Assembly: GCF_036669915.1 (NCBI RefSeq)
Contig: NC_089318.1
Span: forward strand, 19,027,422 to 19,091,421
Length of the DNA: 64,000 bases
Direction of reading: 5' to 3'
Source: Pocillopora verrucosa
Lineage: Eukaryota; Cnidaria; Anthozoa; Scleractinia; Pocilloporidae
Shown: positions 1,145 through 61,756 of the stretch, in pieces
Numbering within the stretch: position 1 is the first letter of the stretch
How the letters are laid out: each line of letters opens with the position of its first letter
Translations under genes and position numbers: made by a program
The notes under the pieces: generated by a model
Told to the model about the DNA's origin: nothing
The model's database searches: none
What the model saw: the letters and a program-made list of their open reading frames with translations, nothing else

Positions 1145-3989
1145 ATTCATAAAATAAATGTTGGCTGCCTTTTAGGTGTCTTCGATGGCATCACTGGAAG
1201 CGTATCCAACAGGGTCATCAAATGACATAATCTTTCTCGTTTACTTTGTTAAACATGAATCGACTTAAACTGATTTTAATTTTTCTTTTAAATGCAAATG
1301 TTAATTTTATGCAACAAGTCCACCATTATGGTTCCTCACGCAACAGGATATGGCTCAGCGATGCAAAACGCTTCGTAGTAAATAATAGTAAATAATACAC
1401 ACGATGAACGATTTTTTTAAAACCTTGTTTGTTTTCTGATTTTTTGTTTATCTGTTGTTGCAAATTTCCTTCTTTCTGAAGCCATTCTTCAAAATGTCCA
1501 GTTGACAGACAGCCTTTTTCACGTGACAAGGTAATTATAGCGCATAACTTCATACTTTTGGGTCACGCAAACTAGCGATTCCATGTTCTGCTCTCAGTGA
1601 ACAGATCGGTAGGCATTTTAACGCACAACTCGAAACGCAATTTCCTTCAAATGGGTGGCCCCTATTGCAAAATGAAGTCAAAACAAAACAGGCACAAGGG
1701 TAGAAAACATCGTTGCTCCTTCGTTTGTCACAAACACAGAAATTTGTTTTAATTTACATAGGATCCTCACCCTTCGACGTTCATTTTCATGTATATTTTT
1801 GTGTCTTTATAAAATAAGCGAGATTCTTCGAGGGCAAACCCACTGAAAATAAAAGTTTATTTTGAAGCAATATTTTGCATTTTCTATTGGTTTACCAGCT
1901 TAACAACTTACTCGGGATGTTGAAGGAACACCAGAAAAGTTTTTAAATCACGAGCTAGCGGAGACAAACGTTTCTCGGGTTCTTCCAACATCCTGGGGGG
2001 TTATTACGCCGGTAAGTCGATAGCAAGTGCGATCCATCGCTTAACTATCTTCTAGTCACCATTGTCTGTGATTGATCACGGTTCACTGAGAGAAATGCTG
2101 GAAAAGGAGAATTGTCTTTATTACAAGTAGAGTACAAAACTTATGCCATAGGTTTGAATAGCCATGGCTATTTGAACCTATGGCATATGGCATATAGTAT
2201 TTGTCCATGCCTGAGAATTTTGCGTAAAGGCTTGAGAATTCTGCGATCACGGATGACTCGTGAAACCTACCTTTTATTTTAATACAGTCAGCCATTTAAA
2301 TACTGCGCGTCCTTTTTGTGCTACAAGCAAAAACCGACGGCATTTCTTTTTTCTCGCTCAAGATCTCATTCTCTTTCTGTCTTATTCGATAGAAAATTAT
2401 TACACAGAAACATCTTATACAGTTGGGCTTAAATATTAGGTTCGAAAACTTTGATCCCTTACTGATAAAAATGTGAGTATTTTACTTCATAAACTTTGTT
2501 AGTACAACAGCATGTCTTTATTGGTCAATTTCAATAAGACGGAACAAATTTTGAAAGCATTTTAGTGATAAAAACTTCTTTTCGATTTTCTTCAGCGACA
2601 TCACAACGTCTGTCAAAAGTCTCCGGTTCAATGTACCAACAATTGTGGTCTGAGAAATATTCCACGAGAAAAGGTAACATTTAATATTCTCGGTGATTCT
2701 CAGTTATTCTAACGAGAGTTTAATTGAAAGTTCATGCACACAGCCCGCATGGGACATAGTGCTGCTTTATATGAAAGAACACAGGCTTAGAAAAACCCTA
2801 TGGAACTTCCTTAATAGAATTACGTTTTCTTTTGAGGAGGTGGGAGTGGGGGAAGGGGGTACGGTGTATAGATTCCCTATAAACTAATGTAACATAGAGC
2901 TAAGTCATTTGAACTCCGAGTAAGACTACTGGTTTATATTGGCCTTTGATGACCTCAAACATCAATGATGATCGTGGTGTGTTTAGTAGGATGGTTGTTT
3001 CAGTTATCTATTGTTTTTGTCATATATTACAGGTGATACTATGAAACAGGGCTTCAAGCCTAAATAAATCAATGATATTGATGTAGGTATGAAGGTATTT
3101 CTTAGATTGGGTGGGAAACGTCGAGGAACAGTCAAGTACGTCGGACCTTTATCAGGAAGTTCAGGTTGGCTCGGCGTAGAGTTAGATCCGAGTGAAGGTG
3201 AGTATTAATATATGAATATTGACATGTTCTTCTAAATTACGTGAGAGTTATTGCTCATGGTAAAAGTGAATAAGTTCGTGAACTTGAAACTTTTAAAAAG
3301 ACTGTACATCGACTGCTGTAAGTATCAAGTATCTTTCGTTCAGAAGAGCTATTTTATACGAACTGTCTAGGGAGCTGTCTTAAAGTATTAACATTGATAG
3401 ACATCGTGTAAATGTATTCTGAAGGTAGTAAAACGAGGGTACTCATTGAAGTTTAGCACCGAGATAATCCACCCCAAGATCGAAACGTTGTCCTTTCATG
3501 ATGAAGGTTTGTGGGAAAAGGTTCTCCCCTCATTCATAGTAAAACTAAACCTCATTCAGAGTAAAACAACTTGTTGGCGTGTTTTTCCGTAGTAGATGAG
3601 GCTCACTTTTTATATTGATTTTCTCTTACTTTGGATTACTGAAATTTGAAATTTTTTTCAGAGCGAGATTTACTGTGGTCTTTCGCTAGCCGTGACGGAG
3701 TACATATGGGAAAAAGATACTTTAGCTGGTGGGTAATGTTATGTCTCTCTCTTAAGATAATTTTTGTAACCCAGAAATTCTTGTTCGATGTGTACGCCGT
3801 TTGATATCGATGGCGTCAAATAAAGAGGGAATTAATTCTGTTACGTCTCCATCTACTCATGCACATCTGTTTTCGGTTGGTTTCATTAAAAATGACATAG
3901 GATCTTTTTTGTTTGTTTTATTAACCCTCAGTGCTCATGGTAGAGGCACCTTCGCCGCGTTTGTTAACGTTCTTGAGTGTTACAGATGA
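1145..3989 (+). pseudogene. TRAF/CAP-Gly gene copy A, decayed
   Basis: This is the most damaged 5' copy of the array gene. Visible relics are: exon 2 (RING second half, KCPVD-type) at about 1480-1530, with its acceptor changed from CAG to GAAG; exon 5 (zinc-finger segment) at 2596-2673; and the CAP-Gly exons 8 (3033-3197), 9 (3662-3728) and 10 (3932-3989). Exons 1, 3, 4, 6 and 7 are missing: sequence near 2140 jumps from intron 2 material to intron 4 material, and exon 5 is followed at once by intron 7 material. Exon 8 has a TAA at 3065-3067 where the other copies have TCA. The end of the CAP-Gly domain (GKRYFSC, then VLECYR and stop) is still readable, so the loss is fairly recent. It is non-functional as a full-length protein; use of the CAP-Gly exons alone cannot be excluded. 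Confidence 0.85.
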
Positions 3990-7502: not shown

Positions 7503-10500
7503 ATGGCGGCTGGTCATAATATTCCAGAGCTTGGAGGCTATGATTTTGAGTTTACGAGAGTAGTTCCGGATGATTTTGAATGCCCTGTGTGTCAGTTAAC
7601 AATGAAAGATCCCATACAGATTGGAGGATGTGGCCATAGACTTTGTAACATATGCTTAGAGAGCTTGTTGAGGTAATGCTGAATCACTGCATGTCGAAAG
7701 AAGTGGCAACCGAAAACAATCAAGCTTACTTGGAAGTTGAATGACGATATTGACCAGTTGAATGACTTCCCAAGGGAATCATAGTGTGTCTCAGTTATAT
7801 ATAAGTAATTACTAGATAGCTTTATCCGGCACAAAACAATTCAAACAGGTTAGAGTTTGGTGTGAGTACTTAATGCGACGGAAAGCTATCAAATATTACA
7901 TGAAATAGTTGTTGGCTACCTTTTAGGTGTCTTCGACTGCTTCAGCACAAGTGCATCTAACAGAGTCATCGAATGATATGATCTTTCTCGTTTACTTTGT
8001 GAAATCAGTGTTCTCCTTTTCCGGCAGTAACCGGTAACATTCACCGCCTGTAGTAACTCTTATAACCGTCTAAAATTGCTTCAAATTCTTGAAAATTCAA
8101 CTTGTAAAAGGATTACTTTACCGGTTTGAAAATTAAATTTACCTGTCATGCTTAAAATAACGGAAAACACTGTAAATATGAATCGACTTAAACTAATTAT
8201 AATTTGTCTTGTAAATGCAAATGTTAATGACATGCAACAATTCCATCATGGTGGGTTCCTCACGCAACAGAATATGGCTCAGCGATGAAAAACGCTAAGA
8301 CTTTAAAGTAAATAATTACAGTACACATGATGAAAGATTGTTAATATTTTGTTTGTTTTATGATTTTTTTGTTTGTCTGCTGTTGCAAATTTCCTTCTTT
8401 CAGGAGGCATTCTCCAAAATGTCCAGTTGACAGACAGCCTCTTTCACGTGACAAGGTAATGATAACGCACAACTTCATACTTTTGGGTCACGCAAACTAG
8501 CGATTCCACGTTCTGCTCTCGGTGAACAGATCCTTAGGCATTTTAACGCACGACTCGAAACGCAGTTTCCTTCAAATGGGTGGCCCCTATTGCAAAATGA
8601 AGTCAAAACAAAACATGTCAGGCACAAGGGTAGAAAACATCGTTGCTCTTTCGTTTGTCACAAACGCAGAAATTTGTTTTAATTGATATAGGATCCTAAC
8701 TCTTCGACGTTCATGTTCATGTAAATGTTTGTGTCCTTATGAAATAAGCCAGATTCTTCCAGGGCAAACCCACTGAAAATTAAAGTTTATTTTGAAGCAA
8801 TAGTCTGCGTTTTCAATCGGTTTACCAGCTTAACAACCTGCTTGGAATGTCAAAACACGAGGAAAGTTTGTAAATCGTGAGCTGGCGGAGGCAAGTGATT
8901 GACAAACGTTTCTCGGGTTCTCCCAACATCTTGGGTGGGTTATTAAGCCGGTAAGTCGATACAAAGTGCGTTCCATTGCTTAATTATCTTTTTAAAATAA
9001 TTCAAATAGTACGCGTGCTCTGATTGGCCATAAAACCATTTTACATGAGCGTATGTGAACACGGTTTTCGTTCCTCTTTCATTAGCTATAAAAGAAATGT
9101 AAAATGGTTTCCATGTTTACATAGCCTGATGTAAACACGGAAACCAATTTACATTTCTTCATCTACTCACCAATGTCTGTGAATCATCATGGTTCACTGG
9201 GAGAAATGCTGGAAAAGGAGAATTGTCTTTATTACAAGTAGAGTACAAAACATATCCTTGTGTCTGGGTTATCAGATATTTCCAGATGTCGCTTGTCATC
9301 GCAGAATTCTGGATCTCGAAGTGAAATGTTCTTATGTTGGGTGTCCTTGGACTGGAGAACTCCGAGCTGTGCAGGTAATGTATCTACGTCATATTCACCG
9401 TAAAGGCGTTCTCTATCACTTCATTCGCCGTTGATCCCAAAAATTAAAAATCTCAAACATTTTAATTTGTCTCCTTCATAATAAGCAAGCATTGCACTTA
9501 TTCCTGCTACTCTTAACCATCGAGGCAGCAAGACATGATGTTATACGAAGCATATCAGGGTAACTTGTGGAGCTCAACTCAACAGTTTCTTGCACAATAG
9601 TAACTATATGGACTGAACAGCGGTGTTGTTCTGGTATTTGCAATCTGAGGTGTCATGGTCAGCAGTTTGCGCGCAACATGACAGATTTTCTTCCTGTCTG
9701 ATAATCTTTGATAGGTGCCTATTATACTAAACGTTTATTAAATATTTATCTCTAGTCTTAGGGATATCATTATTATCAACAAGTCACACGTAAATTTCAC
9801 ATTTCTTTTCGTAGATCCTAAACCATCAGTTAACCGATTGTTTCGCTGTCAATCAAGTCTCTCTTTTCTTTAGCCTGTTGTATGTCTTAGCAGATTGGAT
9901 CATGATTACATTACAGTTTATTATCGATAAATAATGATTTCAGAAACATCAGTCAGAATGCCTGTTCAATGCGGTGGAGTGTCCAAATGAAGGATGTAAA
10001 GAGAAGCTCACCATGCGAGATATGAACAATCACATGACAACGGAATGTGTCTGGAGGGAAGTTAGTTGTGAATATTGTCGAGGATCATTTATCGTGAAAA
10101 ACAAGCAGGTTTGTTAACAAAAATGTGTTTCTTATATAGCTTCTACAAGGGTAGCATCTTAAAGTGGTGACGAATTTCAATCTTTATTGAGTCAAGATTT
10201 TGTTAAGCTCTAGGTATCTTCTCTTATTTGATATAAAATTGTTACACGGAAACATCTTACTTAAATTGGGCTTAAATGTTGCGTTCGAAAACTTTGATCC
10301 CTTACTGATAAAAAAGTGGGTATTTTACTTCATAAATTTCGTTAGTACAACAACCTGTCTTTATTGGTCATAATTTTAATAAGACGGAGAGAATTTTGAA
10401 AGTACATTAGCTATAAAAACTTCTTTTCGATTTCTTCAGCAACATCACAACGTCTGTCAAATGTTTCCGGTTCAATGTGCCAACAATTGTGGTCTGAGTA

Positions 10501-13500
10501 ATATTCCACGAGAAAAGGTAACATTTAATATTGTTAGTGATTCTCAGTAATTCGAACGAGAGTTTAATTGAATGTTCATGCACACAGCCCGCATGGGACA
10601 TATTGCTGCTCTATCTGAAACGTCACAGGCTAAGTCTTGTTTTATGTGAGCAATTTGGAGACGTTCCGTGCTCAAATGGTCAAAGAACATGCACTATTGT
10701 TTTGAATATATTCCTGGCTTCAGTCAGAGGACATGAAGGTCGTCATTTTCTGCCTTAAATGGGCCTTCCAGAATTGAATCTAGGTAGCTCCATAATAGGG
10801 AAACAATCCATAACACCGTAACGATCCCTTCAAGGAAGTTTGCTCCGTTAAACTTTGCAGTAAAATGCCTTACACTACTAGGGAACATTTTTAAATTTTG
10901 TCTCTGAATTCAGTTCCCTGATTCATACATTACGAAATCTAAGGAGTAATTTTGAGACACCGAATGATTTTTTTTCGCTAAGCACGAGAGAGGATTCCTG
11001 TGGCTGCTCACAGAAGACTAAATCTTCTCTATCTTTTTGTTTTAGCTCTTGGCTCATATTCGTGATCACTGTCCTTTCACAGAAATTGATTGTAAATACA
11101 AGAACTTAGGATGCCAAAATGCGGTATGAAACAGCTTTCAGTTTATATTAAATTGCAGGTTTGGCGGGGAGGTCGTATGTTTGTATTGTATTTCCATATC
11201 ATGTTGTAAAATGAATTAAAATGGAATGTCAAATATGTAAAAAATTTTTCATTTTGTAGGGTTTAAAAAATTCCTAATAACCTGTGCGGCAGTTGAATCA
11301 AACTGTTTATTTCTGGAAGGAACAAGTAGATCAATAATTAACAAAAATTTAATGTTTGGATTGTATTAAAAGAGTTTAATGACCACATCGTCTTTTTTTC
11401 AGTTTCCAAGAAAAAGAACGAAATCTCACTTAGAATCACACATGGAAAGCCACTTGAACCTAGCTCTGTGCAGCCTTGAGATCACTCAGAATCAGGTTAA
11501 AGAACAGTCAAAGCAGATAGAAAGATTGGTGGCAAAAAATACAGAACAGTCACAGCAGATAGAAAGATTGGTGGCCAAAAATACAGAACAGTCACAGCAG
11601 TTGCATAATCAGTCACAACAGTTGAATGATCAGTCACAGCAGATCGAAAGATTGGTGGCCAAAAATACAGAACAGTCACAGCAGATAGCCATCTTAGAAC
11701 CTCTGAGAAGCCAGCCTCAATATCAAGCCGCAATGGTGGACCCAACCGCGACCAAACAAACGAAGGACCAAACAAACAAGATAGGGGCAACCAATGCCTA
11801 TGTTAAAGAGGGTAAGTTTCTATAGAAACTTTGGCGTTGCGTCGATGGGGGGTATAATAAGATATCTTGGTCAGTTTTATCAGCTGAGTTGATGACATAA
11901 ATTGGCCACCGTAAAGAATTTCTAAAGCTGACGTTTCGACCGGTAACCCTCCGTCAGAGTGAATAGAGAAATGGTTGCGTGCGTTTTATAGGTAGATAAA
12001 ATGGAAGTCTCACCGATAATCACACTCTAAAACATTATTACTCGCAAGGTAAAGCACGTAGGAAGCGGCTAAAGCACGAAAGAAATGTAGAGAGACACAC
12101 GAGACGCAGTCGAGCCGCTTCCCACTTGCCTTACGATAGAACAGAGCGGAGTCAAGGCTTCTCTATTTGTTTTATGATAAAGAATCCGTTAAATTCCCCA
12201 CTCATTGCTTTCTATTTTTTAAAACAAACTTTCTTTCCAAATCGATCAACAGTGTCGTCAGCATGCTCTATACTCTCTTAAAGGAAGCTACAATAAGCCA
12301 ATCAGAATCCTTGATAGAATGGTTCAATTAATCTGATTGGTTGAACAAGACTAAAGCTGTCAAAAATGTCAAACCATTAAAGTTCACAAACCATGAAAGT
12401 TTACAATCTTGAGTAGTTTACAAACTGAAATAGTTTGGCACGTCGAATCCAACACTGTTGCCTAAAGTAATTTAGTCTCTAATACAGAATCTGAAAGTGA
12501 AATGTTCGGTGAAATCCGGCCGAATTGTGGCTCATAAAAACACGCGAGTTTTTTCCATGATAGATAGAAAACATACTGCTCAAGGCGTATGTTTTATGAA
12601 TGAGCAACAACCGAAATCACAGGAATATAAAGATTGATCGGGATGACGGCGTCGTAAAACTCGGCTGCTTTGAGTGATGTAGCCTTCCACTGAACGCATC
12701 GGAAAGGATACCAGAGCAAGCTCTTATTTGTTCACTCGAAGGGCGGCCGATGTAATTTCTGAGGCTTGCTTCACCGCGATGACCGAAGATCGCCATTATG
12801 AGCCAGCCGTGTTGGACCTCAGCATAATTGCAGTCGCTCTGACACCGTCATGATTGATGAATTTTAACAGTTATGCCAGTTTGGCTATATTTTTTATCAT
12901 TCCCGTGTTGTTCTGTTTTGTTTTTGAACACGAAATTATATGTACTACACGAGTGTCAACTGTGTTTTTTTGATTTTTATTACCGTATGTAAGCTTGAAA
13001 TCTAACTGAGTGTGAAAACCTTCAAAACTCGGAATGTCAATTTCTTTTTCTTTGAGGATTTTCGTCTCTGCTTACGTTATAATCACGCCAATTACGGCGC
13101 TTGACATGTTGCAAACCTTTGTTTAGTCCTTCTATTTGCCGACTCACTTGTTCCGCCGGATTCAATCGCTCTGACGAAGGGCTAATGCTCGAAACGTCAG
13201 CCTTTTTACTCTTTAGGATGGCCCATTTTCGTTTTCAACTCAGTTGTTAACTCCAAATTACCTGTTATACTCTCCCACCAACGCAGCACCATAGTTTCTT
13301 TAGAAACTTACCCCTTTATTCATTTCTCTTGCTCTATGTTCTATACTCTGGTAGAACACGCTGTTTCAACCAATGACAGCGCGCGTTATCCCGGGCTTTA
13401 TTAAAATATTTGGTAAGATTATTTTTTTGAGGGGCGGAAGGGGGTACTGGTGTGTAGATTCGCTTATAAGCTAACGTTACGAAGAGCTGAGTCATTTGAA

Positions 13501-14602
13501 CTCCGAGTAAAACTACTGGGTTATGCTGGCCTCTATGACCTTAAATGAAGTCTAATTGATGATCGTGATGTATTTAGTATTGTGGTCGTTTTAATTATCT
13601 ATTGTTTTTGTTATTTATTACAGGTGATACTATGAAACAGGGCTTCAAGCCTAAATCAATCCATTATATTGAAGTAGGTATGAAGGTATTGTTTTATCAA
13701 AGGCTTGTGAGGAAACTTCGAGGAACAGTCAAGTACGTCGGACCTGGACTTACAAATTTCATCGGCGTAGAGTTAGATCCGTGGGAAGGTGAATATCGAC
13801 ATATGAATGTTGAAATGTACTGATAAAATTAAGAGGAAGTAATTGGTCACAGTAAAAGTGAGTAAGCTTGTGAACTTGAAACTTTTAAAAAGACTGTACA
13901 TTGACTGCTGTAAGTGTAAGTATCAAGTATCTTTCGTTCAGAAGAGCTATTTTATACGCTTTGGTCTAGGGAGCTGTCTTAATGCACTAACATTGATATA
14001 GGCATCATGAAATTGTATTCTGAAGGCAATAAAACAAGAGTACTCATGGAGATTTAATACCGAGATAACCCGCCCCAAGATCAAAATGTAGTCCTTTCAT
14101 GATGACGGTTTGTGGGAGAAGGTTCTCCCCTCATTCATAGTAAAACTAAACCTACATTTAGATTAAAACAACTGGTTAGTGTGTTTTTTGGTAGTAAATC
14201 AGATTCGCCTTTTGTAATGATTTTTTTTTACCTTAGATAACTGAAAGTTTTTTTTTCTTCTTTCAGAAGTACCGATATGGTTAGGTCACCGTGAGAGCAA
14301 CGGAACGTATGAGGGAAAAAGATACTTTAGCTGGTGGGTAATCTTATGTCTCCTGCTTAAGATAATTTTTTTAACCCAGAAATTCTTATTCGATTTATAC
14401 GTCACATGACATCCATGGCGTATGATATATTGATAAGGACAGAATTAATTTTGTAACGTCTCCATTTACTCATGCACATCTGTTTTCGGTTTGATTTATT
14501 AAAAATGACAAAAGATCTTTTTTGTTTTTTGTATTAACCTTCAGTGCGCCAGGTAGAGGCCTCTTCATTGAGTTTTGTGACGTCATTGAGTGTTACAGAT
14601 GA
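7503..14602 (+). CDS. TRAF-type RING/zinc-finger protein with C-terminal CAP-Gly domain, copy B (apparently intact)
   Basis: Ten coding exons: 7503-7672, 8404-8455, 9276-9374, 9944-10108, 10440-10517, 11046-11123, 11403-11811, 13624-13788, 14267-14333, 14545-14602. All use GT/AG and the phases agree; the product is about 446 aa. Residues 27-66 form a C3HC3D RING (C27, C30, C43, H45, C48, C51, C63, D66), as in TRAF E3 ligases. Residues 75-240 hold about five TRAF-type fingers (KCSYVGC, ECPNEGC, SCEYC, QCANNC, DCKYKNLGC with paired H/C ligands). Residues about 245-335 are a coiled coil built on a 14-residue repeat (LVAKNTEQSQQIER). Residues about 364-446 are a CAP-Gly domain: VGMKVLF, RGTVKYVGPG, GVELDP, NGTYEGKRYFSC, RGLFIEF. 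No MATH domain, signal peptide or membrane segment is seen. The likely role is a cytoplasmic adaptor or ubiquitin ligase; the CAP-Gly partner is unknown. The start was chosen by conservation between copies. Splicing is predicted only. Confidence 0.85.
9094..9157. repeat. Imperfect hairpin within a copy-B-specific insertion
   Basis: An insertion of about 170 bp (about 8992-9166) in intron 2 of copy B is absent from copy C, where the flanks are contiguous. Its core is an imperfect palindrome: GAAATGTAAAATGGTTTCC pairs with GGAAACCAATTTACATTTC around a short loop. This is typical of a MITE-like insertion after the B/C duplication. Confidence 0.6.
11499..11690 (+). repeat. In-frame heptad-coding repeat in exon 7 of copy B
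   Basis: The coding sequence repeats in units of 42 bp (two heptads, EQSQQIERLVAKNT) and 21 bp (one heptad, such as NQSQQLN or DQSQQIE). Unit lengths are multiples of seven codons, so changes in number keep the coiled-coil register. Copies C, D, E and F have different numbers of units at the same place. Confidence 0.8.
11812..13340. mobile_element. Inverted-repeat insertion in intron 7 of copy B, with Penelope-like ends
   Basis: The left 150 bp (from the splice donor GGTAAGTTTCT to about 11960) is the reverse complement of the Penelope-like terminus seen at 39339-39489. The right end (about 13163-13330) is the same terminus in sense orientation. About 1.2 kb of non-coding DNA lies between. 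Copies D, E and F keep only the left terminus, so the interior and right end were added in the ancestor of B and C. No transposase or reverse transcriptase frame is visible. Confidence 0.65.
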
Positions 14603-34432: not shown

Positions 34433-37400
34433 ATGGCGGCTGGTCAGAATATTCCAGAGCTTGGAGGCTATGATTTTGAGTTTACAAGTGTAGTTCCCGA
34501 TGATTTTGAATGTCCTGTGTGTCAGCTAACAATGAAAGATCCCATACAGATCGGAGGATGTGGCCATAGGCTTTGTAACATATGCTTGGAGAGCTTGTTG
34601 AGGTAAGGGCGAATCATTGTATGTCGAACAAGCAAGAACTGAAAACAATCAAGGTTATCCGAAAGTTGAATTACGATATTGACCGGTTGAGTCACTTTCC
34701 AAGGGGTATCATAGTGTGCCTTAGCTATATAGAAATAACTGCTAGATAGCTTTATCCGGCATAAAACAATTCAAACAGGTTCGAGGTCGCTGTGAGTACT
34801 TGTGAATGCGACGGAAAGCTATCAAATATTTGATCAAATATTTGTTGGCTGCCTTTTAGGTGTCTTCGATTGCTTCAGCACCAGCGCATCTAAGAGAGTC
34901 ATCGAATGATTTGATCTTTCTCGTTTACTTTGCTAAACATGAATCGACTGAAACTAATTACAATTTGTCTCTTAAATGCAAATGTTAATTATATGCTATA
35001 AGTCTACATTATGGATTCCGCAACAAGATATGATGCCCAGTGATGACTTTATAATAAATAATACACGCGATAACCGATTTTTAAAGATTTTGTTTGTTGT
35101 CTGATTTTTTTGTTTGTCTGATGTTGCAAATTTCCTTCCCTCAGAGGCCATTCTCCGAAATGTCCAGTAGACAGACAGCCTCTTTCACGTGATAAGGTAA
35201 TGATATCCCATGTCTTCATATTTGCGGGTCACGCAAACTAGCGATTCCACGTTCTGCGCTCGGTGAACAGATCCTTAAGCATTTAACTTACAACTCGAAA
35301 CGCATTCTCCGTCAAATGGGTGCCTGTAAAATGCCGAAAAGAGCACAACGCATAAATTATGACTAACAATGCAATAGACGCCATGTGGTCACTCAGTATT
35401 CGTCACGCAAAATACGGTTTTGTCGAATTGCTCTCGCTTTAAAGGCTGACCTTTCGGTGACATACTTTGTTTGACGCTGAATTCTTGACTAATCTTTAGG
35501 CTACTCGTTTCACAAAGAGTCATAAAAGCCCACTAGACGCTTAGATCCCTCAGTGTAACGTTGCGTAAATTGAGTACCGCGGGTCTCGAATTTCTTACCC
35601 TGATTAACTAATATTCAAGTAGTGTTATTTAAATTTAGGTAGCGACAATTTTGCCAACAAAATAAGGACAACAACACGATCAATTAATGATAATGTTCTT
35701 TATTGTAACAAATGGCTATGAAATGTAATCGAAATAAATTTTCAAGGGAGAGATAATACAAATATTAGGAAAAGATAACATCGTAATATTCCCCAAAGTT
35801 AACAAACGTTTGAATTGGTAAAGAACGTGATAGCCGATAAAGAAATTACCCGCGAACCTAAAAGTACTCTGCCAACGATTTCGTTTTGTCTAATACCGTA
35901 CGTTATCAGGATTATAATGACTTTTCAACGCATCAACAATTCATATCTCTCCCCTTGTGGGACTGACTTGAGCTGTTTTTATCTATAGTAAGAATCCCGT
36001 CAGTTATTTGCGGGCGATCCTCTTCGCATATTTTTTGTCAAACGAGCTAAGAACTTATCAGGATGCCAGAAGAGTGCATGCATAATTAATATTAGTTTTC
36101 TGTTTTACTGCGAGTATCACCGTGACCATATCTTCAGAAGTACCATCGCTAGGTAAGCGACGTCATAATATCTTATTTTTCTAAGAGTTGTCTCCAAAAA
36201 TCTCTTTATTTGATATGAAATCGAATCTACCTCTCACTTCTTTAACTACCACAGATGGATGTTTTAATTTTGGAAGCAGCTCATTCTATTTTTTCGAAAG
36301 AAAACGGTGTTTAACGCCTTGTCCTCACGTAGTGCTTTACCCATAGGTATATCCTTGTCACAGCTTTCCCGTTCCATGAATAGGAACTTTATCACTTTCT
36401 CGGCGAGTACTTCCTAAATATATCTGTAAAATATCGCTTTAACTAAAATTTCGACTTCTCTCGAAACACACATGTTAAGTAAGATCGCCTCAGGTTTCGC
36501 ACACTATTTGGCACGCATATAAACATACTTGTCAAGCAAGATTGACTACAACACACGTACTCTATTCGGCACGCACGAAACGCACATGTCAAATGAGATT
36601 GACTACAAGTATCGTGTTCTATTCGGCACGCACACAAAACGTACATGTTAAGTAAGGCGGACTTACTGTTACTTACTCTGTTCGGCACGCACAGATACGC
36701 ACATTTCCAGTGAGATTGACCGCAACACTCGTACTCTATTCGGCACGCACAGAATTGCACATGTCAATTAACATTGAAAACGTCTCGCTCACTATTCGAG
36801 ACGCACAAAAACGCATATATAAAGCGAAATTGCCTCAAGTCTCGCACTCTATTCAGCACGCACAGAAAACGCACATGTCGGTGAGATTGTCTACAAACTC
36901 GTATTCTATTCGGCACGCTTAAAACGCACATGGTTAGTAAGATTAAATTCATGTCTCGCACTCTATTCGGCACGCACAGAAAACGCACATGTCGAGTGAG
37001 ATTGACTACAAGTCTTGTGCTTTATTCGACACGCGCAAAAACGCACATGTCAAGTAAGATTGCCTTAAGTTTCGCACATATTAAGTACGGCTGACGTCGA
37101 GGCCTCGTACTCTATTCGATACGCGAAACAACGCACATATCAAGAAAGATTGACTACGATACTCGCGCTCTATTCGACACGCACAGAAACGCACATGTCA
37201 AGTAAGATTGCCTTAAGTTTCGCACTATATTCAGCACACACAGGAAACGTACCCTATTCGGCACGCTCAGAAAACTCACATGTCAAGCAAGATTGACTAC
37301 AACACACGTACACACGTACTCTATTCGGCACGCACGAAACTGGCATGTCAAGTGTGAATGACTTCTTGCACTCTGTTCAGCGCGCTCAGAAAACGCATAT

Positions 37401-39454
37401 GTCAATTTAGGTTGACTACAAGTCTCACTCTCTATTCGGCACGCACAGAAAACGCACATATCTAGCTATAGTAAGATTGCATCAAGTCTCGTACTAATTT
37501 GGGCACGCACAGAAAGTGCACATGTTAATCAAGATTGAAATCAAGTCTCGCACTCTATTCGGACTCGATACAGACAGCTGATCTGTAGATTTCCTATCCT
37601 ATTTTAGAACTCTCTAGCTCTTTTCTTCGACAATCTGCTTCTGTTGTAATATTGTTATTGTTATTTGTCAGCCTGTTATTCTGACAGCTGGGAATAATGA
37701 AGCTTGCCTTACTTGACATAAAGTTACAAATTTTGGAGTTAATGGTTGAGCTCTTACATTGTATCTTATTTTAAGTTTTGACAAGTTTATATAGGGACAT
37801 AGCGAAGGATTTTGCAACTGAAGCAACAAGTTACGAATGGCTCTGTCTCGTAATTTGATATTTTTGTAAGCGCTTTTGATAATCAGCAATCGCAGATCGT
37901 TTTTATCAAAACCGAGGTTTTCGTAATTTTTGTTTGAATCACACACTACCACTGCTGTGTGATTACAACGTGGTAGTGATGGGTATTACGCATTCAATTT
38001 ACCTTCTATTTTCTCTTACCATTTTCACAACCTGGCATAATAATCATTGTAGGAGACCCGCAGTACTCAATTTAGGCAACGTTACATTTGGGGATGTTAG
38101 CGTTTGAGGGCTGTTTTGAATATTTGTGGAACGAGTAGCCTAAAGATTAGACAAGAATTCAGCATCAAACAAAGTATGTTACCAAAAGGACAGCCTTTGC
38201 AGCAAGAGCAACTCGACGAAGCCGCATCTTGCGTGAAAAATATCGAGTAACCGCATGGTTCCGATTGCATAATCAGCCTTAATTTAAGCGTCTTACTCTC
38301 TTCGGCATGGTGCTCAATTCGACGTTTTCCGAAGGGTAAAACCACAGAGAATTGAAGTTAATTTGGAAGCAACAGACTGCATTTCTATTAGTCTAACAGC
38401 TTAACAACTTACTCGGGATGTTGGAAGAACACGAGAAAAGTTTGTAAATCACAAGCTAGCGGAGGTTCTTCCTACATCCTGCGTGGGTTATTGCGCCGGT
38501 AAGCCGATAGAAAGTGCGTTTCCTTTCTTAATTATCTTCAAGGAGAGTACAGAACGTATGCCCTTGATTTGAATTGGAAAAAAAGCTCCCGCCATGTAAA
38601 TTCAGCCAGAAAATTTCGCGTAGAAGCTGGAGAATTGGGAAATCCATCTTGTAATAGTGCATTATAGTTTTATTTTAATACTGCCAGTCCATTTAAACAC
38701 TGCCCGTTCTTTTTATGCTACAAGCAAAAACTGACGGCATATTTTTCTTTTTCTTTTTTCTCGCTCAAGATCTCATTCTTTTTATATCTTCTTTCAAGTC
38801 CTCCACGCCTTTGTTGAAGAGTGAAAGATCGTAATTAAGCATTATCTTGTTGACATCAGTGTAACCTGATTAGAATGTATTGCCCATGAATATGCTTGTG
38901 TCTGGGTTGTCAGATATTTCCAGATGTCGCTTGTCATCGCAAAATTCTGGATCTCAAGGTGAAATGCCCTCATGTTGGGTGTCCTTGGAAGGGAGAACTC
39001 CGAGCTGTGCAGGTATTATATTTACGTCAAATCCACGTAAGGGCGTTCTCCATCACCTCATTTGCAGTTAATCCCAAAAATGTAAAAATCTCTTAAGCAC
39101 TGTAATTTGTCTCCTAAATAATAAGCAATAATAAGAAAGCGTTGCGCTTATTCCCGCTACTCTTAATCACTGAGGCAACAAGATAAGACTTCGAAAATTT
39201 CTTGCACAATAGTAAAGGTCTGGAGTGGACAGCGGTGTTGTTTTACCATTTTCAATCTGCGGTGTCATAGTCAGCAGTTTGCGCGTGACATGACAGATTT
39301 TCCTAATATCTACTATCTACCCTGATAGGTGCTTATCACTGACGAAGGGCTAACGCTCGAAACGTCAGCTTTTTACCCTTTACGGTGGCCAATTTACGTT
39401 TTCAACTCAGTTGTTAACACTAAATTACCTACTATACTCTCCCACCGACGCAGT

Positions 39455-39485
<31 letters not shown>

Positions 39486-42400
39486 ATTCGCTTATCATAT
39501 TAGACGTTTATTTAATATTTATCCCTAATTCTAGGGATATCATTATTATCAATAAGTCATACGTAAACCCCCCTTTTATTTTCTTAGATCCTAAACCGTC
39601 AGTTAACCGACTGTTTCACGTTCAATCAAGTCTCCCTTATTTTCTTTTGCCTGTTGTATGTCTTAGAAGATTGATTAATGATTACATTGGTGTTTATTCT
39701 TGATAAATTGTGATTTAAGGAACATCAGTCAGAATGCCTGTTCAAAGTGGTGGAGTGTCCAAATGAAGGATGTAAAGAGAAGCTCACCAGGCGAGATATG
39801 AACAATCACAAGATAACGGAATGTGTCTGGAGGGAAGTTAGTTGTGGATATTGTCGAAGATCATTTATCGTGAAAAACAAACAGGTTTGTTAACAAAACT
39901 ATGTTCCTTGTAAAGCTTCTACAAGGGCAGCATCTCAAACTTTTGCTTTTTACCCAAAGTGGAAAAGTGGTGACGACTTTCAGTCTTTATTAAGTCAAGA
40001 TTTTGTTGAGCTCTAGGTATCTTCTCTTATTCGATATAAAATTGTTACACAGAAACATCTTACTAAAGATGAGCTTAAATATCGGGTTCAAAAACTTTGA
40101 TCCCTCACTGATGAAAATATTCGTACAACAACCTATCTTTATTGGTCATAATTTTAATAAGACGGGGGAATTTTGAAAGTACTTTAGCTATAAAAACTTA
40201 TTTTCGATTTTCTTCAGCAACATCATAACGTCTGTCAAAAGTTTCCGGTTCAATGTACCAACATTTGTGGTCTGAGTAATATTCCACGAGAAAAGGTAAG
40301 ATGTAATATTCTCAGGGATTCTCAGTAATTCTCACGAGAGTTTAATTGAAAGTTCATGCACACAGCCCGCATGGGACATAGTGCTTAGTCCTGCTTTATG
40401 TGAGCAATTGAAGGCTTTCCGTGCTTTAGTGTTCAAAGAACGTGCAATACTGTTTTGAATACTTTCCTGGCTTCATCAGTCAGAGGGCATTAAGGTCGTT
40501 ATTTTCTGCCTTGAGTGTGCCCGCCAGAATTTAATCTTGATTGCTCCATGACAGGGAAGCAATCCATAACACCGTAACGATTCCTTCAAGGAAGTTTGCT
40601 CCGTTGAATTTTGTTGGGGAATGCCTTAGACTAATAGAGAAAATTTTTAAATTTTGTCTCTGAATTCAGTTTCCTGATTCATAAAATACGAAATCTAAGG
40701 AGTAATTTTGAGACGCTGAATGATTTCTTTTCGCTAGGCACGAGGGGGGATTTGTCTGGCTGCTCGCTCTAGACTAAATTTTTTTCATCTTTATGTTTTA
40801 GCTCGTGGCTCATATTCGTGATGACTGTCCTTTAACAGAAATTGATTGTAAATACAAGAACGTAGGATGCCAAAGTGCGGTATGAAACAGCTTTCAGTTT
40901 ATATTAACTTACAGGTTTGGAGGGGAGATCGTAACTTTGTATTGTATTTGCAAATCATGTTGTAAAATGAAGTAAAACGGATTCTCAAATATATATACAT
41001 TTTTCATTTTGTAGGGTTTAAAAAATTCCTACTTAGCAGTGTGGTAGTTGAATTAAACTGTGCACTGCTGGATGGAACAATTAGATAAAAAATCGACAAA
41101 AATTGAATGTTAGGATTGTTTTTAAAGATTTTACTAACCACATGGTCTTTTTTTTTCAGTTTCCAAGAACAAGAACAAAATCTCACTTAGAATCGCACAT
41201 GGAAAGCCACTTGCTCTTAGCTGTATGCAGCCTTGAGACCACTCAGAATCAGGTTAAAGACCAGTCAAAGCAGATAGAGCGATTGACATCTCTATTCAAT
41301 GATCAGTCACAGCAGATAAAAGGATTGGTGGCCAAGAATACAGAACAGTCACAGGAGATAACCAGTTTAACGTCCTCAATGCAGGGTCTGGTGCAGAAGG
41401 TAGAACGCCTCACAGACCAAGATCGACATCAAGCTGTGCTGGTGGACAAACCGACCAACCAAACCAAGGGCATGACAAACAAGATAGAGGCAAATATTGA
41501 CAAGGTTGAAGAGGGTAAGTTTCTGAAGAAACTGTGGCGCTGCGTCAATGGGGGGTATAGCAAGATATCTTGGTTTTATCAATTGAGTTGATGAAGTAAA
41601 TTGGCCACCGTAAAGAATTTCTAAAGCTGACGTTTTGACTGGCAGCCCTTCGTCAGAGTGAATAGTGAAATTTTGGGTTGCGTGTGTTTTATATGCAGAA
41701 AAATAGTAGTCTTACCAATAATCACACTCTTACTCGTATCTGACAAATTATTACCCACAAGTGAGTATTTGATAGGATTTTTTTGGGGGGGGAGGGGGAT
41801 TGGGGACGGGGGCACTGGTGTGTAGATTCGCTCATAAGCTCATGTTACGCAGAGCTAAGTCATTTGAACTCCGAGTAAAACTACTGGGTTATGTTGGCCT
41901 TTGGTGACCTAAAAAGATCAATGAATTCTAATTGATAATCGTGATGTATTTAGTTTGATTATCCTTTTGATTATCTATTGTTTTTGTTATTTATTACAGG
42001 TGATACAATGAAACTGGGCTTCAAGCCTAAATCAATTAATGATATTAAAGTAGGTATGAGGATATTGTTTGGATATGCGGGAAGGAAAGTTCGAGTAACA
42101 GTCAGGTACGTCGGATCTGTCTCTACAATTGGACATCAGCTCGGCGTAGAGTTAGATGAAGGTGAATATTGATATATGAATATTGCAATGTTTTGATAGA
42201 ACTAAGTATGAGTAAATGTAAAAGTGAATAAGTTCGTGGATTTGAAATTTTTAAAAAGACTGTACATCGATTGCTGTAATTATCAGGTATCTTTCGTTTC
42301 TATCTTGCTATTTTATATGCACTGTCTAGGGAGCTGTCCTGAATCACTAACATTGATAGGCATCATGGAAATGTATTCTGAAGGTAATAAAACGAGAGTA

Positions 42401-42921
42401 CTCATTGAGGTTTAGTACCGAGATAATCCGCCTCAAGATCGAAACGTTGTCCTTTCATGTTGAAGTTTTGTGGGAAAAGGTTCTCCCCTCATTCATAGTA
42501 AAACTAAACCTGCATTTATATTTAGTAAATAAGACTTGCCTTTTATATTGATTTTCTCTTACTTTGAATAACTGAAAGTTTTTTCTCTTCATTCAGGGGA
42601 ATATGTACCGTTGTTTTACCCTAGAAACAGCGGAGAATATGACGGAAAAAGATACTTTAGCTGGTAGGTAATGTCATGTCTTTCGCTTAAGATAATTGTT
42701 GTAACCCAGAAATTCTTATTCGATGTATACGCCATGTGACATTGATGGTGTCAAATAAGCAGGAGATTAATTCTGTAACGTTTTCATCTACTCATACACA
42801 TCTGTTTTCGGTGGGTTTCTTTAAAAATGATATAGGATCTTTTCTTTTTGTATTAACCCTCAGTGCAACTTATAGAGGCGCTTTCATCGGGTTTTCCGAC
42901 GTTATTGAGTGTTACAGATGA
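34433..42921 (+). CDS. TRAF-type RING/zinc-finger/CAP-Gly protein, copy D (apparently intact)
   Basis: Exons: 34433-34602, 35145-35196, 38914-39012, 39720-39884, 40218-40295, 40802-40879, 41160-41514, 42000-42161, 42597-42663, 42864-42921; about 427 aa with no internal stop. RING ligands are all present (ECPVC, GGCGHRLCNIC, KCPVD). The TRAF fingers keep their ligands with many substitutions (KCPHVGC, SCGYC, QCTNIC). The coiled coil is short (118-codon exon). In the CAP-Gly domain RGTV is RVTV and the ligand loop reads RNSGEYDGKRYFSC; the end reads RGAFIGF, VIECYR. The exon 4 acceptor is AAG instead of CAG. Intron 2 carries a 3-kb inverted-repeat element and intron 3 a 151-bp Penelope-like fragment. 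It is more diverged from B and C than they are from each other. Candidate poly(A) signal ATTAAA at 43151. Confidence 0.82.
35325..38325. mobile_element. Inverted-repeat element carrying a satellite, in intron 2 of copy D
   Basis: The left end (from ATGCCGAAAAGAGCACAACG near 35334) and the right end (complement ATGCCGAAGAGAGTAAGACG, near 38310) are inverted repeats of about 300 bp; both contain ATACTTTGTTTGA and TCTTTAGGCTACTCGTT. Compared with other copies, about 250 bp of intron 2 was lost at the insertion. The interior holds a 57-bp satellite and no transposase. Non-autonomous foldback-type DNA element, family not identified. Confidence 0.7.
36460..37570. repeat. 57-bp satellite array inside the intron 2 element
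   Basis: About 19 diverged units, each with TCTATTCGGCACGCACAGAA, AACGCACATGTCAAGTAAGA and TTGACTACAAGTCTCGTACT. The anchor GGCACGCAC recurs every 57-58 bp. A period divisible by three lets reverse-strand frames stay open as repeated peptides, but these are by-products and not genes. Confidence 0.85.
39339..39489 (+). mobile_element. Short Penelope-like 3' fragment with target duplication, intron 3 of copy D
   Basis: 151 bp flanked by the 8-bp direct repeat GCTTATCA (39331-39338 and 39490-39497). It starts CTGACGAAGGGCTAACGCTC, contains GGTGGCCAATTTACG and ends AGAAACTTACCCCCTTTATT. Copies B and C lack it. It shows the true end of the element family and is the reference for recognising the antisense terminus at the start of intron 7. 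Confidence 0.8.
41515..41760 (-). mobile_element. Antisense Penelope-like terminus at the intron 7 donor, copy D
   Basis: Beginning exactly at the splice donor GGTAAGTTTCT, the intron reads as the reverse complement of the 39339-39489 element (GAAACTGTGG, ATTGGCCACCGTAAAG, CTGACGTTTTGACTGGCAGC, CCTTCGTCAG). The same is true at 48907 (E) and 60956 (F), and at 11812 (B) and 27287 (C). It is therefore ancestral to these copies. Copy A has lost this part. Confidence 0.75.
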
Positions 42922-48339: not shown

Positions 48340-50314
48340 ATGGTGGCTGGCAAGAATATTCCAGAGCTTGGCGGCTATGATTTTGAGTTTACAAGTGTAG
48401 TTCCCAAAGCCACTTGAACTTAGCTCTGTGCAGCCTTGAAACCACTCAGAATCTGGTTAAAGATCAGTCAAAGCAGATTGAGCAATTGACATCCATATTC
48501 AAGGATCAGTTACAGCAGTTGAATGATCCATCACAGAAGTTGAATAATCAGTCACAGCAGTTGAATGATCCATCACAGAAGTTGAATAATCAGTCTCAAC
48601 AGTTGAATGATCAGTCACAGCAGATAGAAAGATTGGTGGCCAAGAATACAGAACAGTCACAGCAGATAGCCAGATTGATGCCCAAAGATATGAATTATTC
48701 TCAAAAAAATGAGCGATTAATCTCCTCTCTGAATGACCAGTCACAGTAGATAGCCAGTTTAACATCCACTGTGCAGGGTCTGGTGCAGGAGGTAGAACGC
48801 CTGACAGGCCAGGATCGATATCAAGCTGTGCTGATGGACAAAACGACCGACCAAACCAAGGACCAGACAAACGTGAAAGGGACAACCCATGCCAATGTTA
48901 AAGAGGGTATGTTTTTATAGAAACTGTGGTGCTGCGTCGATGGGGGGTATAATAAGATAACTTGGTTTTATCAACTGAGTTGATGATGTAAATTGTTCAC
49001 CGTAAAGAATTGCTAAAGCTGACGTTTCGACCGGCAGCCCTTCGTTAGAGCGAACATAGAAATTTTGGGTTTGCGTGTTTTATATGCAGAAAAATAGTAG
49101 TCTTACCAATAATCACACTCTTACTCGTATCTGACACATCATTTCCCGCAAGTTATTATTGAATAGGAATCTCTTTTTTTTAAGGGAGGGGGGGGGGGCG
49201 GAGGGGACGGGGATACTGGTGTATTGATAAGCCTATGTTACGCAGAGCTAGGTTCTTTTCTGTTCTAAAAACATCAATGAAGTCTGATTGATGATCGTAA
49301 TGTATTTAGTATGATGGTCGTCTTAATTATCTACTGTTTTTTATTTATTACAGGTGGTACTATGAAACAGGGCTTCAAGCCTAAATTAATCAATGATATT
49401 GAAGTAGGCATGAAGGTCTTGTTTAGTCTTTTTGGGAAACGTCGAGGAACAGTCAAGTACGTTGGACCTGTTGCTGGCCATGGATCTAAAGATTGGCTCG
49501 GCGTAGAGTTAGATCCAGATCAAGGTAATATGATGATTAAAATGAAATAATAAAATTACGTGAGAGTAATTGCTCAAGGTAAAAGTGAATAAGTTCGTGA
49601 ACTTGAAACTTTTAAAAAGACTGTACATCCACTGCTGCAAGTGTAAGTATCTTTCGTTCAGAAGAAATATTTTATACGCACTGTCTAGGGAGCTGTCCTA
49701 AAGCACTAACATTGATAGGCATCATGGAAATGTATTATGAAGGTAATAAAACGAGGGTACTCATTGAAATTTAATACCGAGATAATCCGCCCCAAGACCG
49801 AAACGTTGTCCTTTCATGTTGTTTCATGCTTTGTGGGAAAAGGTTCTCCCCTCATTCATAGTAAAACTAAACCTTCATTTAGATTAAAACAACTTTTCAC
49901 GTGTTATTTAGCAATAAATCAGGCTCGCCTTTATATTAATTTTCTCGTACTTTAGATGGCTGAATTTTTTTATGTAGAGCGATCGTTACCGGACTTTTAC
50001 CGGCGGCACAACGGGACATTTGACGGAAAAAGAATCTTTACCTGGTAGGTAATGTTATGTCTCCCGCTTAAGATAATTTTTTCAACCCAGAAATTCTTAT
50101 TCGATGTATACGTCGCTTGACATCGATGGCGTTTGACATATAGACAATGACGGAATTAATTCTGTAACGTCTCCATTTACTCATGCACCTCTGTTTTCGG
50201 CTGGTTACGTTAAAAATGACAAAGGATCTTTTTTTGCTTGTTGTATTAACCCTCAGTGCACCTCGTAGAGGCTGCTTCACCACGTTTGGTAACGTTATTG
50301 AGTGTTACAGATGA
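48340..50314 (+). pseudogene. TRAF/CAP-Gly gene copy E, internal deletion
   Basis: The ATG at 48340 opens exon 1 (MVAGKNIPELGGYDFEF, then TSVVP), but at about 48407 the sequence jumps directly into the middle of exon 7 (AAGCCACTTGAACTTAGC), removing the RING and all zinc fingers and ending the frame at once. The coiled-coil frame continues to a TAG near 48748. CAP-Gly exons 8 (49354-49524), 9 (49978-50044) and 10 (50257-50314) are open: RRGTVKYVGP, WLGVELDP, RHNGTFDGKRIFTC, CAPRRGCFTTF, VIECYR. This is the most consensus-like CAP-Gly of the array together with F. As a whole the copy cannot make the normal protein. Candidate poly(A) signal ATTAAA at 50528. Confidence 0.85.
48485..48680 (+). 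repeat. Seven-residue repeat in relic exon 7 of copy E
   Basis: Alternating heptads LNDPSQK and LNNQSQQ repeat with a 42-bp period (TTGAATGATCCATCACAGAA / GTTGAATAATCAGTCACAGC). The register is kept even though the copy is dead, so the expansion probably preceded or occurred independently of selection. Confidence 0.7.
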
Positions 50315-55493: not shown

Positions 55494-56789
55494 ATGGCGG
55501 CTGACCAGAAAATTCCAGAACTTGGCGGCTATGATTTTGAGTTTATAAGTGTAGTTCCCGATGATTTTGAATGCCCTGTGTGTCATTTAACAATGAAAGA
55601 TCCCATACAGATTGGAGGATGCGGCCATAGATTTTGTAACACCTGCTTGGGGAGCTTGTTGAGGTAGGGGGGCGCATCACGGTACGCTGTATCAAGTTAC
55701 AACTGAAAACAATCATCTTACGTGACAATCACCTAAGTTGAACGACGATATCGACCGGTTGAGTCACTTTCCAAGGGAATTATTGTGTGTCTCAGTTATA
55801 CATAAGTAACAGCTAAATAGCTTTATCCGGTACAAAACAATTCAAACAGGTTCGAGGTCGCCGTGAGTACTTATGAATGCGACTGAAAGCTATCAAATAT
55901 TTCACCAAATAGTTACTTGTTGCCTTTTAGGTGTCTTCGATCGCTTTAGTACAAGCGCATCTAACTGATTCATCGAATGATATGATCTTTCAATTTAACT
56001 TTGATCTTTCACTTTGATCTTTCGTTTACTTTGTTAAAAAAGGAATCGACTTAAACTAATTATAATTTGTCTTTCGGATGCAAATGTTAATTATATGCAA
56101 CAAGTCCACCATTGTGGATTCTTTATGCAGCAGCGTATGGTCCAGCGATGAAAAACGCCAAGACTTGATAGTAAAATAATATACAAGATGACCAATTTCT
56201 AAATGTTTGTTTTCTGACTTTTTTTTTCTGTTGTTGCAAATTTCCTTCCTTCAGGGGCCATTCTCCAAAATGTCCAGTAGACAGAGAGCCTCTTTCACGT
56301 GATAAGGTAATGATATCGCACGGCAAACTAGCGATTCCACGCTCTACTCTCGGTTAACAGATCCTTAGGCATTTTAACTTACAACTCGAAACGCCGTATC
56401 CTTCAAATGGGTGGCCCCTATTGCAAAGTTAAGTCAAAACAAAACATGTCTAGCACAAGGGTAGAAATCATCGTTACTCTTTCGTTTCAGTGTCACAAAC
56501 GCAGAAATTTTGTTTTGAAATAGGATCCTCACTTTAAGTTATTCGTGTGTGTGTACATGTTTGTGTCTTCATTAATTACGCGAAATTCTCCGAGGGTAAA
56601 ACCATAGAAAATTGAAATATATTTTAAAGCGATAGACTGCGTTTTTATCGGTTTACCAGCTTAAAAACAAGTTTGTAAATCACGAGCTAGCAGAGGCAAG
56701 TGATTGACAAACGATTCTCGGGTTCTCCCAACATCCTGCGTGGGTTATTACGCGGGTAGGCCGATAGAAAGTGAGTTCCATCGCTTAGT

Positions 56790-61700: not shown

Positions 61701-61756
61701 CGTGAACTTGAAACTTTTAAAAAGACGGTACATCGACTGCTGTAAGTATCAATTAA

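What the first reader, a model, noticed from the sequence alone, without database searches (positions are those of the whole stretch)
7503..14602. TRAF-like RING and zinc fingers joined to a CAP-Gly domain
Seen: ten exons with matching phases encode a C3HC3D RING, about five TRAF-type fingers, a coiled coil and, in place of the MATH domain, a CAP-Gly domain (RGTVKYVGP, GVELDP, GKRYFSC). The same order recurs in copies C and D. Known: TRAFs end in MATH; CAP-Gly occurs in CLIP, dynactin p150, tubulin-folding cofactors and CYLD, the last acting on TRAF pathways. Inference: an undescribed class of adaptor or E3 ligase coupling ubiquitin signalling to a CAP-Gly ligand.
Basis: partly seen in the sequence, partly recalled or inferred. 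Interest (0 to 1): 0.88.

Follow-up and report, generated by a model that had tools for sequence, protein, structure and literature searches.

The report
Coral TRAFs with swapped-in CAP-Gly tail
A reef coral carries a tandem array of TRAF-like immune-signalling genes whose usual receptor-binding end has been replaced by a CAP-Gly domain, apparently captured from another gene, which shows how a signalling protein can be rewired in one coral family.

Summary
Ten exons at 7503-14602 splice in frame to 446 aa, identical to NCBI's 'TNF receptor-associated factor 4-like' of Pocillopora verrucosa. Pfam finds RING, zf-TRAF (92 bits) and CAP_GLY (44 bits, cut-off 26.5). At least twelve copies of the first CAP-Gly exon lie in one ~165-kb tandem array; some are broken, and copy D has stops in exon 7. 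In the four MATH-bearing paralogues I read, coiled coil and MATH share one terminal exon. The array genes instead splice exon 7 to three exons whose intron positions, phases and 58-nt last exon match an unrelated coiled-coil/CAP-Gly gene on contig C9, the likely donor or its relative. In two protein searches such fusions came only from Pocillopora and Stylophora. The RING is conserved (dN/dS 0.18) but the CAP-Gly drifts (0.81; loops 1.09), and no aligned Pocillopora copy keeps an intact tubulin-tail motif GKNDG (0 of 8). So 'TRAF-like RING protein with a CAP-Gly tail' is right; the ligand is open. No description turned up in my text searches. Transcripts and function are untested.

The parts
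7503..7672 (+). Copy A exon 1: start and most of the C3HC3D RING
   Evidence: 100% identical to NCBI protein P0001
8404..8455 (+). Copy A exon 2: end of RING (CPVD)
9276..9374 (+). Copy A exon 3: TRAF-type finger
   Evidence: aligned to TRAF6 structures
9944..10108 (+). Copy A exon 4: TRAF-type fingers
10440..10517 (+). Copy A exon 5: zf-TRAF
11046..11123 (+). Copy A exon 6: zf-TRAF
11403..11811 (+). Copy A exon 7: presumed coiled coil with repeated units; ends with a phase-1 donor where the MATH paralogues read on into MATH
13624..13788 (+). Copy A exon 8: first CAP-Gly exon, phase-1 acceptor
14267..14333 (+). Copy A exon 9: CAP-Gly loop that normally holds GKNDG
14545..14602 (+). Copy A exon 10: end of CAP-Gly and stop; 58 nt as in the C9 gene
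20285..30081 (+). Copy B, all ten exons, open frame, but no acceptor at exon 6 (26445)
34433..42921 (+). Copy C, all ten exons, open frame, Pfam RING + zf-TRAF + CAP_GLY (40.5 bits); exon 4 acceptor is AAG
55494..62735 (+). Copy D, all ten exons but two stop codons in exon 7 (60802-60807)
48340..50314 (+). Partial unit C2: fragment of exon 1, then exons 7-10 (exon 7 with a stop in the frame read)
1483..3989 (+). Partial unit A0: exons 2, 5, 8-10 detected, stop in exon 8

Best explanation
It is a family of TRAF-like RING proteins of pocilloporid corals in which the receptor-binding MATH domain was replaced by a CAP-Gly domain. SHOWN: the frame, the domains, the tandem array, no detectable MATH in the window, and the matching intron positions, phases and last-exon length between the CAP-Gly exons and a coiled-coil/CAP-Gly gene on contig C9. 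INFERRED (strongly): an ancestral TRAF gene, whose terminal exon coded for coiled coil plus MATH, lost the MATH part, gained a phase-1 donor site and took up the last three exons of that gene or a close relative; the new gene was then amplified in tandem. INFERRED (weakly): the RING and fingers act as a K63-type ubiquitin ligase/adaptor as in TRAF6, oligomerise through the coiled coil, and are aimed by the CAP-Gly domain instead of by a receptor tail. The first CAP-Gly kept a tubulin-tail (EEY/F) site, as Stylophora P0007 may still do; in the Pocillopora array the site diverged, so its members now mostly bind other, copy-specific partners or compete with ordinary TRAFs.
For: Splice model 100% identical to NCBI protein P0001. 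RING, zf-TRAF and CAP_GLY over cut-off in copies A and C and in P0002, P0003, P0006, P0007. Best solved relative TRAF6, residues 11-170, E 1.6e-33. At least 12 copies of exon 8 in C7:19.018-19.182 Mb, at least 10 RING exon-1 and 9 finger exon-4 copies in the same array (lower bounds, 150 of 267 candidates scored). Coiled coil + MATH in one exon in 4 of 4 MATH paralogues read, of 51 MATH matches. No MATH in the window with 4 MATH queries. C9 gene: phase-1 acceptor, phase-1 and phase-2 introns and a 58-nt last exon as in exons 8-10; array CAP-Gly 38% identical to its relative P0121. Exon 7 is 1 mod 3 in 5 of 5. Copy H open in exons 2-10 with all splice sites. RING dN/dS 0.18, exons 1-6 0.42 (4 copies). 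N-terminal tree: the five CAP-Gly-bearing TRAFs in it and four relatives without annotated tail form one clade, 100/98, against 17 others (26 rows).
Against: No transcript was examined. CAP-Gly dN/dS is 0.81 overall and the core 0.61 (bootstrap 0.35-1.15), so selection to keep it is not proven; D and partial C2 were among the 8 copies. NCBI's P0005 is a copy-C-like TRAF read through exon 7 without CAP-Gly, and copy C has the same read-through frame, so the CAP-Gly tail may be optional. The single-clade result came after I dropped four long rows (P0027, P0032, P0123, P0126); with them the origin was unresolved (44% of bootstrap trees). In the CAP-Gly tree P0007 sits with the donor family (98/100), and a single capture is neither shown nor rejected (p-AU 0.102). 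The C9 exon end is one nucleotide out of frame for my reading in this assembly. 3 of 9 TRAF6 residues reported to touch Ubc13 differ.
Confidence: 0.55

Rival explanations
1. The CAP-Gly tail is decaying: the working unit is RING + fingers + coiled coil, a MATH-less TRAF that competes with or dampens ordinary TRAFs.
For: CAP-Gly dN/dS 0.81, loops 1.09 against RING 0.18; GKNDG intact in 0 of 8; exon 8 broken in 3 of 12 copies (A0 by a stop; the copies at C7:19119012 and C7:19181710 by a frame break) and exon 9 not detected in a fourth; NCBI P0005 ends at exon 7.
Against: Core residues stay, 79% identity in the core against 41% in the loops of 8 copies; the exon-8 acceptor is kept in 12 of 12 copies and exon-9 phases in the copies read; the tail is found in both Pocillopora and Stylophora.
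Confidence: 0.25
2. The CAP-Gly tail binds ubiquitin or NEMO-like partners, as CAP-Gly domains of CYLD do, making a self-reinforcing ubiquitin ligase.
For: CYLD CAP-Gly 2 and 3 bind ubiquitin, and CAP-Gly3 also NEMO through a separate surface (PMC8511506, passages read); CYLD CAP-Gly domains are among the weak sequence matches.
Against: CYLD matches rank below dynactin, KIF13B and CLIP4; the exons match the C9 gene; the same paper says ubiquitin binding seems restricted to CYLD.
Confidence: 0.1
3. Members of the array are still microtubule or plus-end targeted ligases that bind EEY/F tails.
For: Stylophora P0007 keeps GKHDG and scores 66 bits to CAP_GLY; GKNDG and its groove bind EEY/F (PMC9062740, passages read). 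Copy C keeps the N, copies C2 and I have H as in GKHDG, and C and C2 have Arg for the Lys (read).
Against: 0 of 8 aligned Pocillopora copies keep both the K and the N of GKNDG, the two residues reported to facilitate EEY/F binding; A, B, D, F and H keep neither.
Confidence: 0.08
4. Gene-prediction artefact: a MATH-less TRAF gene and a separate small CAP-Gly gene lie next to each other.
For: No transcript seen; exon 8 has an ATG near its start in 7 of 8 aligned copies.
Against: That ATG is ATT in copy B and absent in Stylophora P0022 and P0040; exon-7 donor kept in 6 of 6 and exon-8 acceptor in 12 of 12 copies looked at; annotations of two genera join the same exons.
Confidence: 0.04

Closest known systems
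TRAF6 / TRAF family (RING, TRAF fingers, coiled coil, MATH)
   Same: C3HC3D RING and fingers align over residues 11-170 to TRAF6 structures, E 1.6e-33; the exons of the N-terminal part line up with those of another TRAF gene on contig C8
   Different: No MATH domain; a CAP-Gly domain takes its place, in separate exons
TRAF7 (recalled, no call): RING, TRAF finger, coiled coil, WD40 instead of MATH
   Same: Precedent for a TRAF-like protein with another C-terminal domain
   Different: WD40 repeats, not CAP-Gly; not a coral tandem array
CYLD (three CAP-Gly domains and a USP deubiquitinase)
   Same: CAP-Gly used in ubiquitin signalling
   Different: Not a RING/TRAF-finger protein; removes rather than builds chains; its CAP-Gly is not the best match of these exons
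P0121 / contig C9 gene: uncharacterised coiled-coil protein with C-terminal CAP-Gly
   Same: Same intron positions, phases and last-exon length in the CAP-Gly (C9 gene); similarity extends upstream of the Pfam domain into the F(K/A)P stretch
   Different: No RING or zinc fingers in P0121; keeps GKHDG
P0129 of Oculina patagonica: RING + B-box + CAP-Gly (TRIM-like)
   Same: A RING protein carrying the same C9-type CAP-Gly
   Different: TRIM-type N-terminus; a separate event, or a prediction that merged two genes

Membership tests
TRAF family | RING finger of TRAF type (C3HC3D) | tested here: met
   zf-C3HC4_2 33 bits over cut-off 27; TRAF6 best solved match
TRAF family | TRAF-type zinc fingers | tested here: met
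   zf-TRAF 92.2 bits, cut-off 27
TRAF family | Coiled coil (TRAF-N) | tested here: inconclusive
   Heptad-like repeats of exon 7 read by eye; no coiled-coil predictor run
TRAF family | MATH (TRAF-C) domain | tested here: not met
   No MATH in Pfam scans of copies A and C or by tblastn of 4 MATH queries in the window
TRAF family | Ubiquitin ligase activity with Ubc13 | not testable with these tools
   4 of 9 contact residues named in PMC5346735 (passages) identical, 2 similar, 3 different, mapped by eye on the TRAF6 alignment
CAP-Gly domain proteins | CAP_GLY over Pfam cut-off | tested here: met
   44.3 bits in A, 40.5 in C, 47.7 in the D piece, 55.6 in the C2 piece; cut-off 26.5
CAP-Gly domain proteins | GKNDG tubulin/EB tail motif | tested here: not met
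   Intact in 0 of 8 array copies aligned; N kept in C, H in C2 and I; GKHDG in Stylophora P0007
CYLD | Three CAP-Gly domains plus USP domain | tested here: not met
   One CAP-Gly, no USP in Pfam scan of copy A

The most novel reading that the evidence does not exclude
The array is a rapidly diversifying set of ligand-aimed ubiquitin ligases: one conserved RING/finger engine joined to CAP-Gly tails whose ligand loops change from copy to copy under diversifying selection, so that each member recognises a different host or microbial C-terminal tail, a coral counterpart of expanded TRIM-type immune ligases; capture of this same CAP-Gly module by RING proteins happened more than once (TRAF in pocilloporids, TRIM in Oculina).
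Probability: 0.12. Interest if true: 0.82.

Novelty: new variant of a known kind. Interest (0 to 1): 0.58.

Why it matters
TRAF proteins are generally defined by the MATH domain that docks them to receptors (recalled). Here an animal lineage seems to have swapped that dock for a domain from the cytoskeletal toolkit, with the donor-type gene, the exon layout before the swap (in MATH paralogues) and the products all in one genome. That makes the steps of a domain swap readable, and it gives a natural test of what a TRAF RING does when aimed elsewhere. It may also bear on how pocilloporid corals differ from others in innate immunity; TRAF3 expansion in Stylophora was already noted in print (PMC5730576, passages read), without this architecture in the passages I saw.

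Tried and rejected
Rejected: CYLD as the source of the CAP-Gly exons (CYLD matches rank low; the C9 gene matches in introns and sequence). Rejected: a hidden MATH exon in the window (4 queries). Rejected: a separate small CAP-Gly gene starting in exon 8 (ATG lost in copy B). Set aside as a fusion form: P0019, which joins a CAP-Gly end to the next TRAF start and looks like merged neighbours.

Led nowhere: structure prediction (tool switched off), so no fold search was made. Of the text searches aimed at the architecture, searches gave 6, 1, 0 and 1 papers; for these I saw titles and abstract starts only, except passages of PMC10404244, so PMC8195603 and PMC2837644 were not opened. The lists were capped (20 of 30, 15 of 59, 10 of 24, 10 of 2475). 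The search for P0007-type CAP-Gly exons in the own genome did not complete, so whether Pocillopora also has a GKHDG-type fusion is not settled.

Limits: protein searches reach only relatives that share exact words; the corals named among the hits were Pocillopora, Stylophora, Oculina, Porites, Desmophyllum and Acropora, so absence elsewhere is weak evidence. One search listed 120 of 125 hits. In the selection test A0, G (19107960), J (19119012) and K (19181710) of the 12 exon-8 copies were left out; of the 8 used, D and C2 are broken or partial elsewhere, B lacks an acceptor, and F and I were not read outside exons 8-10. Shared ancestry and gene conversion were not corrected for.

Full report
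WHAT IS THERE. Ten exons at 7503-14602 join in frame with GT-AG borders into 446 amino acids. Pfam finds RING, zf-TRAF (92.2 bits) and CAP_GLY (44.3 bits, cut-off 26.5) and no MATH. The protein is 100% identical to P0001, 'TNF receptor-associated factor 4-like [Pocillopora verrucosa]', whose contig length equals that of the window's contig C7. So the window is from Pocillopora verrucosa, and NCBI's records already contain this model under a plain TRAF name.

COPIES. Copies B, C and D have the same exon lengths, exons 7 and 8 apart. A and C are open; B lacks the exon-6 acceptor; D has two stops in exon 7. Outside the window the array continues: at least 12 copies of exon 8 between C7:19018273 and C7:19181862, at least 10 of exon 1 and 9 of exon 4, all on the plus strand. 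Copy H (exons 2-10, C7:19139008-19145674) is open with all its splice sites, and an exon 1 lies upstream at C7:19130860. Of the 12 exon-8 copies three are broken (a stop in A0; frame breaks at 19119012 and 19181710), and at 19107960 exon 9 was not detected.

IS THE JOIN REAL? No transcript was available. For it: the exon-7 donor is kept in 6 of 6 copies looked at and the exon-8 acceptor in 12 of 12; exon 7 varies in length but is 1 mod 3 in 5 of 5; annotated proteins of P. meandrina and Stylophora pistillata join the same exons (P0003, P0006, P0015, P0022, P0040). Against it: NCBI's P0005 reads through exon 7 and stops without CAP-Gly, and copy C has that frame too. The tail may therefore be optional in some copies.

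WHERE THE CAP-GLY CAME FROM. A region search with the Stylophora CAP-Gly (P0007) found one other protein, P0121, a coiled-coil protein with a C-terminal CAP-Gly, 66% identical over the region. Its relative lies at C9:18262037-18265186 (L057). There the CAP-Gly is cut by introns at the same two places in the same phases (1, then 2 inside a Cys codon), its first exon has a phase-1 acceptor, and the last exon is 58 nt including the stop, as in the array (my reading; array lengths). One nucleotide is missing for that reading at the end of the first CAP-Gly exon in this assembly, so the C9 gene itself may be broken or mis-assembled. The array CAP-Gly is 38% identical to P0121.

WHAT IT REPLACED. 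Of 51 MATH matches in the genome I read four, on C7:12.55-12.58 Mb and C8:11.906 Mb: coiled coil and MATH lie in one terminal exon homologous to exon 7 in 4 of 4, though L063 has a stop near the start of that exon. No MATH is detectable in the window. The simplest history is loss of the MATH part of exon 7, a new donor site, and uptake of three foreign exons.

HOW OLD AND HOW OFTEN. In two protein searches with the fusion, RING/zf-TRAF + CAP_GLY proteins came only from Pocillopora and Stylophora; TRAFs of Oculina, Porites, Desmophyllum and Acropora carried MATH or no annotated tail. A tree of the first 240 residues puts the five CAP-Gly-bearing TRAFs in it, with P0005, P0018, P0020 and P0029, in one clade (100/98, 26 rows), after four long rows were dropped; with those rows it was unresolved. 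In the CAP-Gly tree P0007 groups with the donor family (98/100) and a single capture is not rejected (p-AU 0.102). One or two captures remain possible. Oculina P0129, RING + B-box with a C9-type CAP-Gly, suggests that the module can join other RING proteins, unless two genes were merged in that prediction.

HOW IT MAY WORK. The RING and fingers match TRAF6 over residues 11-170. Of nine TRAF6 residues reported to touch Ubc13 (PMC5346735, passages read), four are identical, two similar, three different by my reading; Asp57 is kept and Ile72 is Val. Selection on the RING is strong (dN/dS 0.18; exons 1-6 0.42; 4 copies). The CAP-Gly is 0.81 over 8 copies; its core 0.61 (bootstrap 0.35-1.15) and its loops 1.09 (0.70-1.72), so neither constraint on the core nor diversification of the loops is proven. 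GKNDG, reported to bind EEY/F tails (PMC9062740, passages read), is intact in 0 of 8 copies; C keeps the N, C2 and I have H, and Stylophora P0007 has GKHDG. I conclude that a TRAF-type ligase is aimed by a CAP-Gly domain, first perhaps to tubulin or EB tails, and in most of the Pocillopora array to something else or to nothing. CYLD shows that CAP-Gly can bind ubiquitin and NEMO (PMC8511506, passages read), but that is analogy.

IS IT KNOWN? In ten text searches (several lists capped) no title or abstract start describes this architecture; four were aimed at it (6, 42, 43, 92). Two listed papers that hold the terms were not opened. Most subscription papers are not in that library. The nearest precedent, TRAF7 with WD40 in place of MATH, is recalled. 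I file it as a new variant of the TRAF kind, not as a TRAF proper, because the MATH test failed.

Noticed in passing
window 18595-18852, with repeats near 19333, 33310 and 47574: A rhodopsin-like receptor fragment (7tm_1, 29.0 bits, just under its 30.5 cut-off) lies between TRAF copies, next to a repeat found three times at about 14-kb steps; the tandem unit may carry a receptor gene too.
   Followed up: partly
window 4173-4436: GIY-YIG domain ORF (26.3 bits, cut-off 22.6), of the kind seen in Penelope-like retroelements (recalled).
   Followed up: partly
G000:C3:21.90-22.15 Mb (9 matches; L016, L019, L021, L023, L024, L027, L028 read): A second tandem cluster of CAP-Gly half-exons, apparently with several CAP-Gly domains per gene; one piece best matches CYLD CAP-Gly1 (E 7.7e-5, almost tied with RIKEN 1700024K14, a CLIP-type protein), another piece matched nothing. 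Possibly an expansion of CYLD-like genes in the same coral.
   Followed up: partly
G000:C3:21570443 (L025): A CAP-Gly half-exon near a frame that reads like a coiled coil running into a kinase start (by eye).
   Followed up: no
G000:C8:16.31-16.98 Mb (L004-L006): Long single-frame proteins (open frames 827, 828 and 957 aa) with an N-terminal CAP-Gly followed by what looks like a transglutaminase-like region (by eye).
   Followed up: no
P0129, Oculina patagonica: RING + B-box protein with a C-terminal CAP-Gly of the same C9 type: a second RING family with this module, or two merged genes.
   Followed up: partly
window 11498-11691 and counterparts in the other units: Coiled-coil exon built of repeated units that differ in number between copies (family D4), so oligomer length may vary.
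   Followed up: no
P0022, Stylophora pistillata: Predicted protein that joins a reverse transcriptase (PF00078) to a TRAF-CAP-Gly gene; probably a retroelement merged by the predictor.
   Followed up: no
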